Positions 500 through 63,914 of a stretch of 64,000 nt of DNA are shown piece by piece. Below the pieces are notes generated by a model. The model did not search any database, was not told the origin of the DNA, and saw only the letters and a list, made by a program, of their open reading frames with translations. The stretch is taken from positions 1-64,000 of the forward strand of contig NZ_JAFBCZ010000006.1 in assembly GCF_016907925.1 (NCBI RefSeq), in the 5' to 3' direction. Position 1 is the first letter of the stretch. Every line of letters begins with the position of its first letter. Both the position numbers and the translations under genes were made by a program. Source of the stretch: Herpetosiphon giganteus. Lineage in GTDB: Bacteria; Chloroflexota; Chloroflexia; Chloroflexales; Herpetosiphonaceae.

Positions 500-2029
500 A
501 TGCAGCGCCGACGATTGATGATAATTGCAACTAGCCTGACGCTGCTTTCGGCGAGCGTTGGCTTGAGTTTGGCTCGGACGAATAGCTTGTTGGATGACCC
601 TGATTGTAGCGTCAGCGATTGTACATTCTTGCCATTAATTTTGAAAAATGCGAGTGAGATCACGGCTTTGCCAAGCGCAACGCCAACCGCATTCGGCGTA
701 ACAGTTTCGCCAACCGCTGAGCCAAGCCTCACCGCGACGGATACTCCGTTGCCAACCAACACGCCAACCGATCTGCCAACTGCAACCAGCGTTCCAACTA
801 ACACGCCAACCGATGTGCCAACTGCAACCAGCGTTCCAACTAGCACGCCAACCGATGTGCCAACTGCAACCAGCGTTCCAACTAACACGCCAACCGATGT
901 GCCAACTGCAACCAGCGTTCCAACTAACACGCCAACCGCAACCAACATTCCCAGCAACACGCCAACCGAAACCAGTACGCCAACTAACACGGCAACCGCA
1001 ACTAGTACCACCACAGCTACGCCGCGACCACCAACAACTACGCCAACCACGATTGTCGGCACGGCCACGCCAACCACGCCCGCCAACTTCACGCGAATTG
1101 TTTGGTCGACTGCTGTGCCAACGCCATTTAGCTATCCTTTTGGTGCAGTCGAAGCCCAAGGTGCGGTTGTCGGCGGCAAATTGTATGTCTTTGGTGGTTT
1201 CGGCCAGCCTGGCTTATCGGGCGATACGCCCTCGCGCTTGTCGAATGTCTACGATCCTGTGGCCAATACTTGGACGGCGATTGCACCCTTGGAGCGTGGC
1301 CTGACTCACGTTGGCACGGCGACTGATGGCCAGAAAATCTTCTTTGTTGGGGGCTATATCGAAGATTTTGATGGCGTTGGCCAAATTTTTGGCTCGCGGG
1401 TTTCCCGCTATTACGATACTGCCACCAATAGCTACACCAACTTGCCGGTGATTCCGCTGCAACGTGCCGCTGGCCAGTTGTATTATTTGGATCGCAAGTT
1501 GCACTATGTTGGCGGAACCTACTACAAGGTAAATGATGTTGGCACCCACTTTGTGCTCGATTTGAATAATTTGGCGACTGGCTGGGTAACCCAAACCAAC
1601 CAATTAACCTATGCCGAATTGCCCAACCCACGGCAGCACGCTGGCGGCGTGGTGCTTGATGGCAAACTCTATTATATTGGCGGCCAACATGGTCACGATG
1701 GCAGCTTAACCGTCGATAACGATGTGCATCGTTATGATCCTGCAACCAATGCGTGGGAGCAATTGGCCGATATTCCCTTGGCCTTGAACCATATTAGCCA
1801 CTCGACGGTAGTGCTTGGCGGCAAGATTTTCGTGTTTGCTGGCCAGACAACCAATGGCACAAAACATAACACGATTTATGTGTATAATCCGGCGACCAAT
1901 ACGTGGGCGCAGATGCCCAATAACTTGCCAGCAACCCGCTATTCGGGCATTATTGGCGAGATTAATGGCACGCTCTATTTCACAACTGGCGGCGGAACCA
2001 CCAGCTACCGTGGAATTCCCACACCCTAA
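500..2029 (+). CDS. Secreted kelch-repeat protein with Thr-Pro linker
   Basis: A 509-residue exported protein, probably a cell-surface or extracellular beta-propeller; its ligand or enzyme activity is unknown. Residues 1-26 form an Arg-rich then hydrophobic signal peptide. A short [10 protein letters not shown] segment follows at about 41-50. Residues 80-195 are a Thr/Pro/Asn/Ser-rich linker that contains four 14-residue tandem copies (85-140). From about 215 to the end there are kelch blades, recognisable by [29 protein letters not shown] and TTGGG with YDPATNAW-type spacing, about six blades in all. The ATG has a GGAGG 7 bases upstream. Two glycosyltransferase genes follow on the same strand after a hairpin. 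Kelch plus secretion is clear; function is not inferable. Confidence 0.88.
752..919 (+). repeat. Four 42-bp tandem repeats coding a Thr-Pro linker
   Basis: Four in-frame 42-bp units encode the 14-residue unit [14 protein letters not shown] with one or two substitutions per copy (L for V in copy 1, S for N in copy 3). Degenerate units continue to about base 1070. The length is a multiple of three, so gain or loss of units would keep the frame. The strand opposite shows long open frames only because of this repeat. Confidence 0.9.
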
Positions 2030-2076: not shown

Positions 2077-3132
2077 ATGACCATAAACATCTATCCAATT
2101 CCGCGTTTGCTCACAACTAGTCCGTATCTGGATTTGTTATATGATCCATTTGTTGCTTGGCCCGAGCTACGGATTATGCGCCAGCCGTTTGCTCAAAGCT
2201 TGCGCGCTGGCTTGCTGGGGCGTGATCAGCGCGTTTTGCATTGGCATTTTTTCGATGAATTGACCCAGCGTCCGAGCCAAAGCGCAACCGCTTTGCGCAG
2301 TATGAGCTTTATTGCGCTTTTGCGTTTGCTGCGCTTGCGTGGCGCAAAACAGGTTTGGACTGCGCACAACTTAGAGCCGCACGAATTGCGCCATCCTGCT
2401 TGGGCTAAGCGTAGTTACCAAGCTATGATTCAAGCGGCTGGCCAAATTATTGTTCATTCACAGGCTGCGGCTCAGTTAATCGATCAATGCTATCAGGTTG
2501 CGGCAAAAACCACGGTTATTGCGCATGGGGCGTATATCGGTTTTTATGGCCCGCAATTGCAACAAACTGCCGCCCGCGAGCTATTACAGCTCAAGCAAAA
2601 CGAGTTTTTAGCGGTTAGCTTGGGTACACTGCGCCCTTACAAAGGCGTAGAATTATTAATCGAAGCTTGGACTGCTGAGCTTGGTCAATTGGAGATCGTC
2701 GGAGCAGTCAAAGACCCATTGTATGTTCAGCAATTGCAGCAGCTTGCGACAAGCCCAGCGATCACTATTCGACCAGATTTTATTGCCGATGCGTTGTTAC
2801 CTGCATGGTTTGCGGCGGCGGATGTAGTGGTCTTGCCGTATCGCAAAACATTAACCTCGGGCATGTTGTTGGCGGCATTGTCGTATGCTCGGCCCGTGGT
2901 TGCGCCCGATTTGCCGCCAGTGCGCGAGTTGATTCGCGAAGGTGAGAATGGCTTTTTGTTTGAGCCAAATAATGTAGCGAGTTTACGATCCGCCTTGCAG
3001 CGCGCCGCCGCGCACCCCAATCGTCAAGCCTTGCAGCAAAACGCCTTACAAACGGTTCAACATTTGGATTGGGCACAGCTTGCGGCGCAAACTGCTGACG
3101 TGTATCGGCGCTTATTCGAGAAGAATCCATGA
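2077..3132 (+). CDS. Glycosyltransferase, GT4-like
   Basis: A 351-residue GT-B-fold glycosyltransferase, probably acting on a polysaccharide or glycolipid. The C-terminal donor-binding half is clear: GTLRPYKGVELLIEAW opens it, and DVVVLPYRKTLTSGMLLAAL followed by ARPVVAPDLPPVRELI...GENGFLFEP is the usual GT4 signature, although the canonical EGFG glutamate is replaced here by an LTSG form. The N-terminal half has WTAHNLEPHE, an acceptor-side loop. An in-frame TTG at 2047 lies inside the hairpin, so the ATG at 2077 is the more natural start. The gene overlaps the next glycosyltransferase by 4 bases, so the two are co-translated. Acceptor and sugar are unknown. Confidence 0.82.
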   Translation: MTINIYPIPRLLTTSPYLDLLYDPFVAWPELRIMRQPFAQSLRAGLLGRDQRVLHWHFFDELTQRPSQSATALRSMSFIALLRLLRLRGAKQVWTAHNLEPHELRHPAWAKRSYQAMIQAAGQIIVHSQAAAQLIDQCYQVAAKTTVIAHGAYIGFYGPQLQQTAARELLQLKQNEFLAVSLGTLRPYKGVELLIEAWTAELGQLEIVGAVKDPLYVQQLQQLATSPAITIRPDFIADALLPAWFAAADVVVLPYRKTLTSGMLLAALSYARPVVAPDLPPVRELIREGENGFLFEPNNVASLRSALQRAAAHPNRQALQQNALQTVQHLDWAQLAAQTADVYRRLFEKNP

Positions 3133-4031
3133 TTTCAGGCCAAATTTCGATCATTATTGTGAGCTACAACAGCGCCGAATTGCTCCCAGCCTGTTTTGCT
3201 AGCCTCGCCACCACCAACGACGACAACTATCAATTAATCGTCGTCGATAACGCGTCGAGCGATGGTTCGGCAGAACTGGTGCGCCAACACTATCCGCAAG
3301 TCACGCTGATCGCCAATCAACAGAATCATGGCTTTGGCGCGGCATGCAACCAAGGCATGGAAATAGCAACTGGCGAATATTTTGTATTTTTCAATCCCGA
3401 TGTGCAAATAACCCCCAATTGGCTGACGATTTTGCGCCAACATTTGCATGAACATCCACAGGCAGCGATTATTTGCCCAACCACATTGTACCCCAACCAA
3501 GCGCCGCCCACTCGCCAAGGTGTAGCGATGACGGCGGCGGTTCCTGGTTGTGCGCTGCTGTTGCGGCGGAGCGCATGGCAAGCAATTGGCGGCTTCGACC
3601 CCAAGATTTTCCTCTATTGGGAAGATACCGAGTTGTGCTGGCGGGCGTGGTTGTTGGGTTGGCAGGTGCTCGAAGATTTCGAGGCGCTGGTCGTTCACGA
3701 ACGTGGCGGCAGCGGCGGCGGCCAGCGTTGGTTGGTCGAAAGCAGCAAAAATGGTTTGTATAGCTACCTAAAGTTGCGGCCATGGTCGGCGGTTGTTGGC
3801 TATAGCGTGCGCATGCTGGCCAAAACCGTGCTTGTGAGTCTGCGCCAGCGCAATTTGACCATGTTCAAGCTTTGGATTTGGCACCTAAAAAATCTCAACC
3901 AGACGCTTGCAACCCGCCGCGCAATTCAAGCCCAAGTCACTGCCGATCGCAACGTGGTCGAGCGTTTGATCAAACAGCACCTAGCCCGCGGCAAGCGGGA
4001 ACGGAATGCAAGGATGAAGGATGAGGAATGA
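3129..4031 (+). CDS. Glycosyltransferase family 2, rhamnosyltransferase-like
   Basis: A 300-residue GT-A-fold enzyme. IIIVSYNSAELL at the N-terminus and VVDNASSDGSAELV are the nucleotide-binding start of GT2 proteins. FFNPDV stands where many GT2 enzymes have DXD, which is typical of the WbbL-type rhamnosyltransferase branch. FDPKIFLYWEDTELCWRAW carries the ED catalytic-base motif. The start ATG overlaps the stop of the preceding glycosyltransferase (ATGA). The final residues RMKDEE are encoded by AGGATGAAGGATGAGG, a unit of the intergenic GGATGAA repeat, so the native C-terminus has probably been altered by repeat insertion or erosion. Confidence 0.85.
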   Translation: MISGQISIIIVSYNSAELLPACFASLATTNDDNYQLIVVDNASSDGSAELVRQHYPQVTLIANQQNHGFGAACNQGMEIATGEYFVFFNPDVQITPNWLTILRQHLHEHPQAAIICPTTLYPNQAPPTRQGVAMTAAVPGCALLLRRSAWQAIGGFDPKIFLYWEDTELCWRAWLLGWQVLEDFEALVVHERGGSGGGQRWLVESSKNGLYSYLKLRPWSAVVGYSVRMLAKTVLVSLRQRNLTMFKLWIWHLKNLNQTLATRRAIQAQVTADRNVVERLIKQHLARGKRERNARMKDEE

Positions 4032-4377
4032 AATCAGAAAGAACATAGAGCATAGAGCATAGAACATAGAATATTGGGGCTGATGGCTATGGGCTATAGG
4101 CTATTGGGCAATTTTTCGTGGAATTCGTGCAATTCGTGGCTAAAGAATCGTGCTTCGCGTCCTTCGCGCGCTTCGTGGTTCCTATCCCTTCGTGGATCAA
4201 ATTCTTAACGCAGCGGCGCAGAGAACCCATGGCTATTGGCTGCTGGCTATGGGCTTTGGAAAATAATAATCAATACAATCTGTGGCTAAAAATAACTATT
4301 CGTGCAATTCGTGGCCTTCGCGGTTCCGATCCCTCGTGGATGAATGCTGGATGCTGCTTAGTATTGAGGAGAATTTG
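4032..4377. repeat. Intergenic repeat mosaic, left flank of SMI1/KNR4 gene
   Basis: Contains ACATAGAGC units (4042-4071), a GGCTATGGGC unit, TTCGTG/TTCGCG nonamers (about 4115-4197), a GCAGCGGCGCAGAGA unit (4210-4223) and further TTCGTG units to 4340. Bases 4065-4180 are the left copy of a 116-bp direct repeat whose other copy is at 4910-5025. No gene is supported. Confidence 0.8.
4065..4180 (+). repeat. 116-bp direct repeat, left copy
   Basis: By eye this matches 4910-5025 at 115 of 116 positions (A/G difference in GGCTATAGGC versus GGCTATGGGC). Same orientation, start-to-start distance 845 bp. It flanks exactly one gene, the SMI1/KNR4 protein. Confidence 0.9.
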
Positions 4378-4869
4378 ATGAATATTACGATTGTTGATGG
4401 CTTTGCCCCAACCAACGAGCAAGCAGTCGCGGCCTTTGAACAAGAGTTGGGTTGTCGCTTGCCAGAAGATTATCGCGCATTTTTGCTTGAACACAATGGC
4501 GGCCAGCCTGAACTAACAGTTTTTGATATAAATAGCACTTTGATGCCCGATGATCAAAGTATGATCCATTACTTTTTTACCTTAGACCCAGCTTCAGAAT
4601 ACTATGAAATACGCGATGAGATTAAAGTCTACACCGATGAAACCCGAATGCCACCAGAGCTTTTGCCAATTGCCTGCGATCCTGGTGGCAACATCATTTG
4701 CTTGGGGATTCGTGGCGAGCAACGTGGCAAGGTCTATTTTTGGGATCATGAATTTGAGCTAGAGGCCGAAGAGATGGGCGATCTTTACTATAATGTTTCG
4801 TGTTGCAGCCCTTCATTCCAAGCCTTTGTTGAAAGTTTGTCGCCAGAATCAGAACTTAATTACGAGTAA
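4378..4869 (+). CDS. SMI1/KNR4 (SUKH) family protein
   Basis: A 163-residue SUKH-superfamily protein. The family signature is seen as AVAAFEQELGCRLPEDYRAFLLEHNGG at about 15-42, followed by a central ILPIACDPGGNIICLGI-like strand pair (here LLPIACDPGGNIICLGIRGE) and VYFWDHE. Many bacterial members are immunity proteins against contact-dependent or polymorphic toxins, but no toxin gene is next to this one, so it may be an orphan immunity gene or a housekeeping SUKH protein. The ATG at 4378 follows GAGGAG; the open frame extends upstream only through repeat sequence. The gene is isolated between two 116-bp direct repeats and may behave as a removable cassette. Confidence 0.87.
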   Translation: MNITIVDGFAPTNEQAVAAFEQELGCRLPEDYRAFLLEHNGGQPELTVFDINSTLMPDDQSMIHYFFTLDPASEYYEIRDEIKVYTDETRMPPELLPIACDPGGNIICLGIRGEQRGKVYFWDHEFELEAEEMGDLYYNVSCCSPSFQAFVESLSPESELNYE

Positions 4870-5145
4870 GAAGCAAAAGCAGAAGTCAAAAAGCAGGAAG
4901 AACATAGAGCATAGAATATTGGGGCTGATGGCTATGGGCTATGGGCTATTGGGCAATTTTTCGTGGAATTCGTGCAATTCGTGGCTAAAGAATCGTGCTT
5001 CGCGTCCTTCGCGCGCTTCGTGGTTTCAATCCTTCGTGCTCTTCGTGTCCTTCGTAGATCAATATCCCTTCATCCTTGCGATAATGGTACAATAGCTGCG
5101 GGCGCAAGCCCTTCTGAATGTTTATCACCATGGTGCTGACAACCT
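4870..5145. repeat. Intergenic repeat mosaic, right flank of SMI1/KNR4 gene
   Basis: Bases 4910-5025 are the second 116-bp direct repeat. It is preceded by AGTCAAAAAG-type units and followed by more TTCGTG nonamers to about 5058. From 5060 to 5145 the sequence is unique and must hold the promoter of the following two-component operon; AATGGTACAATAGC (5084-5097) could supply a -10 TACAAT. Confidence 0.75.
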
Positions 5146-5856
5146 ATGTCCACAATATTGCTGGTAGAAGATGAAGCCCTGCTCGCCGATACGCTGCGTT
5201 ACAACCTCGAACGCGAAGGCTATACCGTGCTTTCTGCTTCCGATGGTGTTACTGGGCTTGATTTGGCTCGCGCTGAACAGCCCGATTTGTTGATTTTAGA
5301 TGTGATGCTGCCTAAGCTCGATGGCTTTTCAGTTTGTCGCATTTTGCGCCGCGAAACTAATATTCCCATTATGATGCTCACCGCGCGCCAAGATGAAGTT
5401 GATCGGATTGCTGGCTTGGAATTGGGCGCTGACGATTATGTGATTAAGCCATTTAGCCTTGGCGAATTGCTGGCCCGTGTGCGGGCAATCCTGCGCCGAA
5501 CCGATCGCCAACCAACCGGCGTTGAACGCGAATTGCTGACCGCTGCCAATCTCAAAGTTGATACTGGCAGCCGCCGTGTGTTTCGCGATACCAACGAAAT
5601 TACCCTTGCCCAAAAGGAATTTGATTTGCTGGTCTGTTTGATGCGCAACCGTGGCATGGCGCTCTCACGCGATTTGCTGCTCGAACGGGTTTGGGGCTAC
5701 GATTTTCCAGGCGATTCGCGCACGGTCGATGTGCACGTGCGGTGGTTACGCGAAAAAGTCGAGCTTGACCCAAGCAACCCAATTTATATCCAAACAGTGC
5801 GCGGGATTGGCTATCGCTTCAATGATCAACTCAGTCGTAGCGAGCGCAAAAACTAA
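5146..5856 (+). CDS. OmpR/PhoB-family response regulator
   Basis: A 236-residue DNA-binding response regulator. The receiver domain covers about 1-118, with the acidic pocket VEDE at 7-10, phospho-acceptor Asp52 in LLILDVMLP, the switch Thr in MMLTAR and the conserved Lys in YVIKPF. A winged-helix DNA-binding domain spans about 130-228, ending with [15 protein letters not shown] and [11 protein letters not shown]. Its stop overlaps the start of the histidine kinase (TAATG), so the pair is co-translated. The PhoB-like sequence suggests phosphate or envelope-stress control, but no phosphate genes are adjacent. The following MoxR/DUF58/DUF4129 genes look like part of the same transcript. Confidence 0.93.
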
Positions 5857-28588: not shown

Positions 28589-28914
28589 TTATTGATCCAC
28601 AAAGAGCACGAAGTTACACGAAGGCTGAAATTGCGAGGGGCGTAAAGCCTGAAACCGCGAAGATCGCGAAGATCGCGAAGGGGGATGAGGCTCTGGGCTT
28701 TTGGCATTAGGCTATCGGAACAATTGTTGGAAATTCAACAAATCTCCGATAGCCAATCGACAGCAGCCAATAACTCTACTTCGTGCCCTTCGTGGCCTTC
28801 GTGGTTAAAAAAAGCTCTGCGCCGCTGCGTTAAAAATTGATGCTTGTTTCAATCCCCTCATTCTGATATAGTCAAAATATATTGTTTTGATTGCAAAATG
28901 CAGGAGATTTATCT
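28589..28914. repeat. Repeat mosaic upstream of AT-rich orphan gene
   Basis: Contains CACGAAG/CGCGAAG nonamers (28601-28681), a compound hairpin GGCTATCGGA...TCCGATAGCC (28710-28719 with 28745-28754; inner TTGTTG/CAACAA), TTCGTG units (28780-28803) and a CTCTGCGCCGCTGCG unit (28815-28829). From about 28855 the sequence is AT-rich and unique and carries the start signals of the next gene. Confidence 0.75.
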
Positions 28915-29580
28915 ATGTCCAGAAAAGCAGTAATCAAAAACTATATCCAACGATATAAATGTGGTGAAAAAGAGGCACGAGAAAGATTTAATTCGATTCA
29001 AAAATTGTGTACGAATGTTAGACCAACATATAGAGCTATATGGCAAGCAATGCAAGATAATAAAAATACAACAGATTTATTGATTGCTGAATCTGCTAAG
29101 AACATTCACTTGAGTGAAAATAAGGGGATTTCTATCGAGAATATTAATAGAATTAAAAGAAATGAAAATTCTATCGATAAACTAAGTCGTATTAGGGCCA
29201 GATGGGGTATAAATACTAGTAGTCCTAATAATGCTAAATTGGTAGAACAAAATGATAGAATTATAGTAAAAAAGAAGATAATACCTAAAAAGGTATTGAT
29301 ATATGAAAAATTAGCAGAAGTAAGTGTTTTAAAGAAGAAATATGGTTATTCTGCGAATAAGGGTATACTACCAAGAAAACGTCTTGAATCTTTGCAAAGG
29401 GCTGTTGTAGGAGAAGGTATTAAGAAAGTTACTGCACATATAGAATTATTATATAAAATGCGTAAAAATCATCCTAATATGGAGAATGCTATAGTAATTT
29501 GGGAAGCTGATCTAGAGTATCTTAAAAAAGTGAAATATAATAAAAAAAAGAATAGCTATAGTTGGCCTATTATCAATTAA
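28915..29580 (+). CDS. AT-rich orphan gene, unknown function
   Basis: A 221-residue basic protein I do not recognise. Codon and base use (AAA, ATA, AGA, AAT) differ sharply from neighbours, so recent transfer is likely. Two related-looking charged segments occur: VIKNYIQRYKCGEKEARERF near the start and, after a KKIIPKKVLIYEKL linker, YGYSANKGILPRKRLESL with QRAVVGEGIKKVTAHIELLY and a final W-containing helix (VIWEADLEYLKK). The last part has the shape LPxxRLxxLxxAVxxxGxxxVxxxIxxL that is also seen in some phage and virus proteins, but this is only an impression. No signal peptide or membrane helix. ATG at 28915 follows AGGAG; repeats flank both sides. Confidence 0.75.
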   Translation: MSRKAVIKNYIQRYKCGEKEARERFNSIQKLCTNVRPTYRAIWQAMQDNKNTTDLLIAESAKNIHLSENKGISIENINRIKRNENSIDKLSRIRARWGINTSSPNNAKLVEQNDRIIVKKKIIPKKVLIYEKLAEVSVLKKKYGYSANKGILPRKRLESLQRAVVGEGIKKVTAHIELLYKMRKNHPNMENAIVIWEADLEYLKKVKYNKKKNSYSWPIIN

Positions 29581-32784: not shown

Positions 32785-33459
32785 CTAATGGATATTGGTT
32801 GCAATGTGGCTTGTTTCCGGATTCGTTGAGCCAATCGCAAGTTGTTGGTTGCGCATTGTTAATGCTTGGATTGGGTGTTGCAAAATGGTTTTGGCATGCT
32901 GATACATGCTGCGATAGGTATAGATGCTTAAGCCAAATGCGCCAATTAAAATTGGGAAATATATTGACATTTGCACCACAATCAAGGCAATATACACCCC
33001 ATAGATGCGCAAAAAACCATATTTTAGGCTTAATCGGGCAGTTTGACTGGTAGTATGGTTACGGCTCAGCAAGCCAAGCATTGGCACAACCACTAAACAA
33101 AGGAGCATTGGCCAATAGAATTTTAAACAATAGAGAAGTATTTCAACATTACTTTGGCCTGATGATCCAGTCAAAAATTCCCATCCCCAAAGAGTTTCTG
33201 CAATAGTCCAAAGCGATCGATAAAAATCATGACCTTTAATTAAGGTGATAGCAACTAACCAGCAGCTGGTTATAATTGGCTCCAGCAAATTAATTGTAAT
33301 TAATCCCCAAGCAGCTTTGGCATGATTGCGCGGCATCGCTTGAATGCTGCCAAGCAAAACTAATAGCCATATATTCATGCCGAGGATTAAGATTCCAACT
33401 CCAATTAGAAAAAAGAATCCAATTGCCAGTCCACTCATATTGATCGATAGCAGGTACAT
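32785..33459 (-). CDS. Membrane protein, tandem paralogue B
   Basis: A 224-residue protein with about five helices, the larger and AT-richer of the two paralogues. Shared landmarks with paralogue A are an NLLEPIIT-type motif in helix 2, FYWPM in helix 3, and a TARL...YGFLRIYG loop. The C-terminal 40 residues are hydrophilic. ATG at 33459 follows AAGGAG. Upstream lies tRNA-Val on the same strand, separated by a terminator. Confidence 0.8.
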   Translation of the reverse strand: MYLLSINMSGLAIGFFFLIGVGILILGMNIWLLVLLGSIQAMPRNHAKAAWGLITINLLEPIITSCWLVAITLIKGHDFYRSLWTIAETLWGWEFLTGSSGQSNVEILLYCLKFYWPMLLCLVVVPMLGLLSRNHTTSQTARLSLKYGFLRIYGVYIALIVVQMSIYFPILIGAFGLSIYTYRSMYQHAKTILQHPIQALTMRNQQLAIGSTNPETSHIATNIH

Positions 33460-33613: not shown

Positions 33614-33690
33614 TGGTGGGCGGTACTGGACTCGAACCAGTGACCTCGTCGGTGTGAACGACGCGCTCTAACCAACTGAGCTAACAGCCC
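33614..33690 (-). tRNA. tRNA-Val (anticodon CAC)
   Basis: 77 bases with encoded CCA. Minus-strand layout: acceptor GGGCTGT, D-arm GCTCAGTTGGTTAGAGC, anticodon stem CGTCG/CGACG around TTCACAC (anticodon CAC, reading GUG), variable loop AGGTC, T-arm ACTGG-TTCGAGT-CCAGT, acceptor ACCGCCC, discriminator A, then CCA. One acceptor pair (position 5 with 68) is a U-C mismatch. An intrinsic terminator follows. Confidence 0.93.
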
Positions 33691-34013
33691 ATAGCCTTCA
33701 AGCCACTGCCGAGTATAGCATAGCCCATGGCTTTGCGCAAATTGATCCACGAAGGACACGAAGGCACACAAAGGGATGAAACCACGAAGCGCGCGAAGGA
33801 CGCGAAGTTAATTTTTTTAGCCACGAGTTCCACGAATTGTATGAATAATGTTCCGATAGCCAATAGCCAATAGCCAATAGCATTCCTTATCTTTTCATCC
33901 TTCATCCCTCATCCTTCATACTTCATAATTTCGCTATGTTCTATGCTCTTTCACGGTACACAATTTGCTCACACAATGCTAGCGATTTCTGTTGATTTAG
34001 AAGGAATTTGTGT
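33691..34013. repeat. Repeat mosaic between tRNA-Val and a small gene
   Basis: CACGAAG/CGCGAAG nonamers (33748-33807), GGCTAAAAA and CACGAGTTCCACGAATTG units, CCGATAGCCAATAGCC (33851-33882), CATCCTTCAT heptamers (33896-33919) and TGTTCTATGCTC (33936-33947), all reading as the complement of the units seen on the left of the window. Unique sequence resumes at about 33950. Confidence 0.75.
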
Positions 34014-63253: not shown

Positions 63254-63914
63254 ACAATTCCTCCATGAACTGTAACTACAAGGGTTTGCCTAATCATCGA
63301 AATCTCGCCGCTGAGATCGTGTATTGGTATGCGTGGCCTCCTTGCTGGCAAACTTATTCCAATCAATAAAATTAATATTCCTAACTATTACGCCATAGCC
63401 ACAGCTAAAAGTCAATATTTCCTTAATAACATGACTAGAATAAGTCATAAGGCCGAGAAAAGGATGAAGGATGAAGGATGAAGGATGAGGGATGAAGGAT
63501 GAAGGGATAGGCGCTCCACATTGAGTTTGAGGTTCTTCGCGATCTTCGCGTCCTTCGCGGTTACGGCCCTTCGTGTCCTTCGTGGATCATTATTTTAACG
63601 CAGAGGCGCAGAGAAATGGAGGGCTATAGGCTGAAGGCTATTGGCTATAGGAAACGTAATCCAAATAATCTGTGGAATCTATGGTTAAAAATACTCATTG
63701 GTGGAATTCGGGTAATTCGTGGCTAAAAAAGGCTCTGCGCTAACAGAGAGTTGTTGAAAATACCAACAATTGTTCCGAGAGCCAAAAGCCAAGAGCCTCA
63801 TCCCTCGTGGTTAAAAATCCTATCAAATTGCTGCACTTTTGCTGCATTTTTGCTACACCCGCCACCCACCGCCTGCTAGACTAAGGGCGATTCATTGAGT
63901 GGATGGAGCATCAC
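63254..63914. repeat. Long spacer with repeat mosaic
   Basis: 63254-63450 is mostly unique, AT-rich in part, and holds the metalloprotease promoter. Then come GGATGAA heptamers (63461-63505), TTCGCG/TTCGTG nonamers (63530-63590), ACGCAGAGGCGCAGAGAAA (63597-63615), GGCTATTGGCTATAGG units, CTCTGCGCTAACAGAG and further pieces to about 63810. 63811-63914 is unique and should hold the promoter of the next gene. Confidence 0.75.

What the first reader, a model, noticed from the sequence alone, without database searches (positions are those of the whole stretch)
4065..5025. SMI1/KNR4 gene bracketed by 116-bp near-identical direct repeats
Bases 4065-4180 and 4910-5025 match at 115 of 116 positions by eye and enclose one complete gene and nothing else. 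Recombination between them would remove exactly 845 bp including the gene. SUKH proteins are often immunity genes, so a removable immunity cassette is plausible, and the repeats themselves are built from the dispersed modules.
Basis: partly seen in the sequence, partly recalled or inferred. Interest (0 to 1): 0.62.

Follow-up and report, generated by a model that had tools for sequence, protein, structure and literature searches.

The report
Gene bracketed by self-matching direct repeats
In Herpetosiphon bacteria a small SUKH-domain gene, probably protective but untested, sits between two nearly identical DNA repeats that are re-matched separately in each species; sister genomes without the gene keep only repeat sequence there, so repeats of this kind appear to be a local machine for losing single genes.

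Summary
Bases 4065-4180 and 4910-5025 match at 115 of 116 positions, exactly 845 bp apart; with gaps the repeat is 141 bp at 95.7%. Every other copy in the 6.16-Mb genome is far less similar. Comparison with five congeners gives the predicted empty site: one relative (about 93% DNA identity) has the same two neighbours with no gene and ONE hybrid repeat, left-flank type running into right-flank type. Two other species keep the gene beside the same glycosyltransferase, each bracketed by its own matched direct-repeat pair of different sequence. So the flanking repeats are homogenised within lineages and, in at least one, appear to have recombined the gene away. In 1.42 Mb I found four more single-gene brackets. 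Three of those four genes are missing from the same relative, one with a clean single-repeat scar although four other species have the gene. Near-identical array pairs 250-1500 bp apart are all direct (five loci), none inverted. Recombination between direct repeats is classical; lineage-specific matched brackets around single genes, made of dispersed 7/9-bp modules, are an apparently unreported variant. Immunity role plausible, untested; no toxin gene adjoins.

The parts
4054..4194 (+). Direct repeat copy 1 (R1): composite of dispersed heptamer arrays (ACATAGA, GGCTATN) and nonamer arrays (TTCGTGNNN, TTCGCGNNN); core 4065-4180
   Evidence: 115/116 to R2 ungapped, 141 bp 95.7% gapped; left flank orthologous to the single block of G004
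4195..4345 (+). Second, different module array between R1 and the gene; resembles in position and sequence the array immediately upstream of the gene in G002
   Evidence: weak similarity, about 79% over 61 bp
4378..4869 (+). SUKH-1 (SMI1/KNR4) gene, 163 aa, preceded by GAGGAG ribosome-binding-like sequence; GC 44%, GC3 42% against 54%/62% for the neighbouring glycosyltransferase gene
4899..5038 (+). Direct repeat copy 2 (R2), core 4910-5025; starts about 30 bp after the gene's stop codon
5075..5145 (+). Conserved region before the response regulator gene (contains TACAAT at 5088-5093); left intact in the empty site of G004
   Evidence: sequence comparison; promoter role inferred
3129..4031 (+). 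Left neighbour: glycosyltransferase gene, next to SUKH in all three species that carry it
5146..5856 (+). Right neighbour: response regulator gene; the right-hand neighbour differs between species because of inversions that break in the arrays
63666..63735 (+). Left repeat of a second single-gene bracket (right copy at contig position 64658-64728, gene 63903-64517, running past the window end); gene missing from the syntenic site of G004

Best explanation
The SUKH gene has been in this place, beside the glycosyltransferase gene, since early in the genus. It lies between two copies of an intergenic repeat array. The two copies recombine with each other. Unequal exchange between sister chromosomes, or gene conversion, keeps them matched to one another within each lineage although the arrays differ completely between species. 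When the same exchange ends in a deletion, the gene is removed cleanly and one hybrid repeat stays behind, with both neighbouring genes and the promoter-like region of the next gene intact. Shown: the matched pairs, the species-specific sequences and the empty site with one hybrid repeat. Inferred: that recombination rather than another process made them, that the change in G004 is a loss rather than the ancestral state, and that sister exchange or slipped replication is the route. The protein itself is most likely an orphan immunity-type SUKH-1 protein (inferred from family membership only).
For: Repeat identity 115/116 and isolation from all other copies. G004, syntenic over 242 kb, has GT, one block, RR with a 291-bp spacer; the two flanking alignments overlap by 138 bp in G004, the mark of one repeat aligning to both copies. 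The G004 block is R1-type on the left, including the R1-specific TTCCTATCCC, and R2-type on the right, with the switch inside a TTCGTG nonamer. R1 and R2 are 99% alike in the core but only 86% and 78% alike to the orthologous G004 block, so they were matched to each other after the split. In G003 the gene is bracketed by a different pair (151 columns, 92.7%, with a long identical run of about 110 bp), in G002 by another (74 bp, 93%). Synonymous divergence of SUKH between G000 and G002/G003 (1.05, 0.76) is like that of the neighbouring GT (0.93, 1.03), which fits long co-residence. The process recurs: a 342-aa gene (contig 3) is bracketed by matched pairs in G000 (97%), G001 (89%) and G003 (96%) and is missing in G004, where one repeat remains although four other species have the gene. 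There, G000's left copy matches G005's RIGHT copy at 92.9% over 182 bp but G005's left copy only at 59.7%, which points to a right-to-left conversion in G000. Short-range matched pairs are direct at all five loci and inverted at none, while beyond 20 kb direct and inverted are about balanced (202 vs 254), as sister exchange or slippage predicts.
Against: G004 is a short-read draft (MiSeq, SPAdes; PMC4653791), so a collapsed repeat in the assembly cannot be wholly excluded, though the repeat (141 bp) is shorter than usual MiSeq reads. The gene was not found in the neighbouring genera, so the empty state may be older than the genus and a late gain in G000 is not strictly excluded. SUKH divergence between G002 and G003 is larger than that of GT (ratio 0.88 [0.64-1.18] vs 0.52 [0.39-0.67]), which hints at some exchange between species or uneven rates. 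The loss in G001 goes with an inversion and is not a clean repeat-by-repeat deletion. In G005 the contigs break here. Only six genomes of the genus were available.
Confidence: 0.7

Rival explanations
1. Insertion rather than loss: the empty single-repeat site is ancestral, and the gene came in on a circle or fragment carrying the same repeat, by a single crossover at the array; this duplicates the repeat around the gene. Gains happened separately in G000, G002 and G003.
For: Such integration gives direct, near-identical flanks at once; the gene has lower GC (44%) than its neighbours; no orthologue was found in G001, G004, G005 or the neighbouring genera; SUKH divergence between G002 and G003 is larger than expected.
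Against: Arrays are scattered over the whole genome, so separate gains would not all land beside the same glycosyltransferase gene in the same orientation; SUKH and GT synonymous divergences between the two clades agree; the sister case (342-aa gene) is present in all congeners but G004, so there loss is clearly the shorter history.
Confidence: 0.15
2. Plain array duplication without recombination between the copies: arrays duplicate locally all the time (slippage of 7- and 9-bp units and of larger blocks), some copies happen to land on the far side of a small gene, and the genes are lost by unrelated deletions.
For: Close direct copies under 250 bp apart are common in G000 (27 direct, 0 inverted pairs); the modules themselves are tandem units.
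Against: It does not explain why the same gene has a freshly matched pair of different sequence in each of several species (SUKH: G000, G002, G003; 342-aa gene: G000, G001, G003), nor why the G004 scars are single hybrid repeats.
Confidence: 0.1
3. Assembly artefact: in G004 the two near-identical repeats were merged by the assembler and the gene between them dropped.
For: The bracketed genes missing from G004 are ones with well matched repeats in G000; G004 is an Illumina draft (PMC4653791).
Against: Repeats of 70-165 bp are shorter than usual MiSeq reads; the G004 assembly keeps other close direct repeats (e.g. 87 bp at 95%, 90 bp apart); the G004 scar differs from both G000 copies by 14-22%; the C20 case involves an inversion, not a simple collapse; the SUKH gene is also missing from a different, near-closed genome, G001.
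Confidence: 0.05

Closest known systems
RecA-independent deletion between short direct repeats, e.g. the H47 genomic island of E. coli (PMC5426353)
   Same: A segment bracketed by short direct repeats is lost without a recombinase of its own.
   Different: Here the repeats are composite arrays dispersed through the genome, the cargo is one ordinary gene, and the flanks are re-matched separately in each species. Excision itself has not been observed.
Short tandemly repeated heptamers of bacteria (STRR of cyanobacteria, from memory; TAACTGA repeats of Beggiatoaceae, PMC4679880)
   Same: Intergenic tandem arrays of 7-bp units, scattered over the genome, of uncertain role.
   Different: Here several 7-bp and 9-bp families are strung together into 100-150 bp composites. 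They show no orientation bias relative to genes (31 same, 31 opposite), whereas TAACTGA repeats were noticed particularly just before start codons.
SUKH orphan immunity genes, e.g. rAID arrays of Bacteroidales (PMC12247911) and polyimmunity loci (PMC3482391)
   Same: Stand-alone SUKH gene without an adjacent toxin; gene content of such loci varies between strains, with recombination suspected.
   Different: A single gene, not an array; no recombinase gene adjoins; bracketed by intergenic repeats; immunity not tested.
Concerted evolution of repeats by gene conversion or unequal exchange (general knowledge)
   Same: Copies within a genome match each other better than their counterparts in other species.
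   Different: Seen here in very short intergenic repeats that bracket single genes.

Membership tests
SUKH-1 / SMI1_KNR4 protein family (PF09346) | Match to the family profile above the curated cut-off | tested here: met
   95.5 bits vs cut-off 25.4, residues 11-131
Toxin immunity gene (SUKH type) | Linked to a toxin gene or shown to neutralise a toxin | tested here: inconclusive
   No toxin gene adjoins in G000, G002 or G003; neutralisation not testable here
Recombination-prone direct-repeat bracket | Two direct repeats bracket a segment, and an otherwise matching site with one repeat exists in a relative | tested here: met
   G004 empty site, flanking alignments overlap by 138 bp
Recombination-prone direct-repeat bracket | Excision seen to happen in cells | not testable with these tools
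   needs PCR or long reads
Concerted evolution of flanking repeats | Left and right copy match each other better than their orthologous copies in other species | tested here: met
   SUKH: 95.7%, 93.2% and 92.7% within G000, G002, G003; no comparable match between clades. 342-aa gene: met in G000 and G003, not in G005, weak in G001; tree support only partial
Transposon or integron cassette | Transposase or integrase gene, terminal inverted repeats, attC or target-site duplication | tested here: not met
   No such gene between or beside the repeats; the repeats are direct composites; Rfam finds only a tRNA in the window

The most novel reading that the evidence does not exclude
Across Herpetosiphon the dispersed 7/9-bp composite arrays form a genome-wide, recombinase-free system of single-gene cassettes. 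A gene bracketed by matched arrays can leave as a circle with one array and re-enter at any array, within a cell or after uptake by another cell, so that accessory genes such as immunity genes turn over through homology between arrays alone.
Probability: 0.12. Interest if true: 0.75.

Novelty: new variant of a known kind. Interest (0 to 1): 0.5.

Why it matters
It ties repeat arrays of unknown role to visible gene turnover: presence or absence of single accessory genes, and larger inversions, break at the same arrays. Because the flanks are matched anew in each lineage, the history of exchange can be read from natural strains, and the excision rate can be measured directly by PCR or long reads. 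If the SUKH gene is an immunity gene, a predatory bacterium would be carrying its protection in a form that is easily lost or exchanged.

Tried and rejected
Integrated mobile element: no transposase, integrase or inverted termini. Structured RNA: Rfam finds only a tRNA in the window. A regulatory or transcription-linked role of the arrays: about 87% of nonamer arrays are intergenic but orientation relative to genes is even (31 vs 31) and they occur between convergent, divergent and co-directional genes. A shared cassette habit of SUKH genes: the second SUKH gene checked (C22) has no arrays around it. Loss of every bracketed gene: one of the five (pxpB-like, contig 3) is kept in all species, with inversions instead. 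A repeat tree for the 342-aa gene gave only weak support at most forks. The first run of the species tree used two sequences in the wrong orientation and was replaced. A literature search for the nonamer strings found no paper.

Full report
WHAT WAS CHECKED. The window is the first 64 kb of contig C6 (260,623 bp) of a 6.16-Mb genome. It belongs to Herpetosiphon by its relatives: one congener's main contig has exactly the length of H. aurantiacus DSM 785 CP000875.1 (6,346,587) and another's contig that of H. geysericola DSM 7119 NZ_LGKP01000011.1 (253,213). These names are inferred from lengths; below they are G001 and G004. The window's own genome is G000.

OBSERVATION. 4065-4180 and 4910-5025 match at 115 of 116 positions, offset 845, mismatch at 4098. 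Allowing gaps the repeat is 4054-4194 against 4899-5038, 141 columns, 95.7%. It is a string of modules: ACATAGA heptamers, GGCTATN heptamers, TTCGTGNNN and TTCGCGNNN nonamers. The gene between them, 4378-4869, is a SUKH-1 protein of 163 aa. A second array, about 4195-4345, also lies between repeat 1 and the gene, so 'nothing else' needs correcting. Of 49 genome-wide matches to the composite, copy 2 has 198 bits and the next best 96.

MODULE BACKGROUND. In 1.42 Mb (contigs C1, C2, C3, C6, C20) there are 422 nonamer-pair sites, 365 of them between genes, evenly on both strands and with no orientation preference relative to genes. Expected by mononucleotide shuffling in C6 is under 1; observed 100.

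THE EMPTY SITE. G004 is syntenic with C6 over 242 kb at about 93% DNA identity. Between its glycosyltransferase and response regulator genes lie only 291 bp: one array block. The alignments of the two flanks overlap by 138 bp in G004, which is what one repeat standing for two looks like. The block starts with the R1-specific left flank, keeps the R1-specific TTCCTATCCC, and passes inside a TTCGTG nonamer into the R2-specific right flank. No orthologue of the gene was found elsewhere in G004.

OTHER SPECIES. G002 and G003 carry the gene (82-83% aa identity) next to the same glycosyltransferase. In both it is bracketed by direct repeats that match each other but not those of G000: G003 151 columns 92.7% with a long identical run, G002 74 bp 93.2%. 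Synonymous divergence of SUKH between G000 and G002/G003 (1.05, 0.76) resembles that of the glycosyltransferase (0.93, 1.03), so both genes have probably been there since the two clades split. G001 lacks the gene; its left array runs into a different neighbour, so the loss goes with an inversion. G005 lacks the gene and its contigs break here. The tree of the flanking genes has G000, G004, G005 against G001, G002, G003, fully supported.

REARRANGEMENTS. The right-hand neighbour of the glycosyltransferase block differs: response regulator in G000/G004, a kinase gene reading the other way in G002/G003, a histidine-kinase-like gene in G001. The junctions seen in the raw sequence lie in arrays. 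At the pxpB-like locus G002 and G003 share an inversion of about 22 kb that also breaks at an array.

GENERALITY. A scan of the 1.42 Mb for module-rich direct repeats (at least 45 bp, 85%) about 0.5-1.1 kb apart finds five loci, each with one gene between: SUKH; a 204-aa membrane-like protein (C6 63903-64517); a pxpB-like gene (C3); a 342-aa protein (C3); a 145-151-aa protein (C20). No inverted pair exists at that range, while beyond 20 kb direct and inverted are about balanced (202 vs 254). Four of the five genes are missing from G004; without SUKH, three of four. The background in the syntenic 242 kb is about 6 of 195 genes. By a rough mental binomial estimate, three of four at that rate is about 1 in 10,000. 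The 342-aa case is the cleanest: present in G001, G002, G003, G005, missing in G004, where the flank alignments overlap by 80 bp at a single repeat. Its flanks are matched in G000 (97%), G001 (89%) and G003 (95.7%), poorly in G005 (71%), not in G002. G000's left copy matches G005's right copy at 92.9% over 182 bp but G005's left copy at 59.7%, which reads as conversion of left by right in G000. The 204-aa gene is in G005 (93%) and G001 (72%), not in G002 or G004; its G004 site is one array with similarity to both G000 arms. The C20 gene is missing in G004 in the context of an inversion, so it is weaker evidence.

MECHANISM. Recombination between the two copies explains all of this with one process. 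Exchange between misaligned sister chromosomes gives one product with the gene doubled and one with a single repeat; later contraction leaves matched flanks, and the single-repeat product is the empty site. It acts only on direct copies, as observed. Slipped replication or single-strand annealing would give the deletion equally well; RecA-independent loss between short direct repeats without a recombinase is documented in E. coli (PMC5426353). The choice among these routes is inference.

FUNCTION OF THE CARGO. SUKH proteins are common immunity proteins of toxin systems and occur as orphans (PMC3482391, PMC12247911). Here no toxin gene adjoins in three species, so 'orphan immunity gene' is a reasonable guess and nothing more. 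The other bracketed genes are unrelated, so the bracket is not an immunity feature.

LIMITS. Six genomes; G004 is a MiSeq/SPAdes draft (PMC4653791), although the repeats are shorter than typical MiSeq reads and G004 keeps other close repeats. The SUKH genes of G002 and G003 differ more than expected, which may mean exchange between species. Direct-versus-inverted at 250-1500 bp rests on five independent loci. Repeat trees are weak.

VERDICT. Observation confirmed; removable cassette supported by a natural empty site and by repeat homogenisation; immunity untested. A new variant of a known kind: direct-repeat deletion, with lineage-specific matched arrays around single genes.

Noticed in passing
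loci L153-L232: The nonamer array TTCGTGNNNTTCGTGNNNTTCGTGGNT occurs in many phyla (Planctomycetota, Verrucomicrobiota, Spirochaetota, Proteobacteria, Acidobacteriota, Bacteroidota and others), often as an inverted pair (AACCACGAANNNCACGAA ... TTCGTGNNNTTCGTGGTT), without the Herpetosiphon heptamer modules around it. I found no paper that names it.
   Followed up: partly
window 28891-29580: AT-rich gene of about 229 aa with no clear family, between module arrays, absent from the syntenic site in G004; looks recently acquired.
   Followed up: partly
window 32785-33459: 224-aa ORF on the minus strand next to a tRNA gene (33617-33690, minus) and an array 81% like R1 (33780-33876); no counterpart in the G004 contig.
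   Followed up: no
window 752-938: 42-bp tandem repeats in the 500-2029 ORF, coding a Thr/Pro-rich 14-residue unit ahead of what looks like a kelch-type beta-propeller domain (by eye).
   Followed up: no
L298, L299; C20 64575-67463 of G000: A locus with up to three genes among several near-identical array copies; gene content differs between congeners and G004 has an inversion here.
   Followed up: partly
L293-L297; C3 313557-313720 and 314804-314967 of G000: The repeats of the 342-aa gene contain a terminator-like palindrome (GCAGGGGATGAAAACCCCTGCG, then CCCGCCTTGAGGCGGG) that is itself dispersed in many copies through the genus.
   Followed up: no
L060 1-11 (G005 C7): Contig begins with ATAAGAGACAG, which looks like part of a sequencing adapter, so G005 contig ends at this locus are unreliable.
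   Followed up: no
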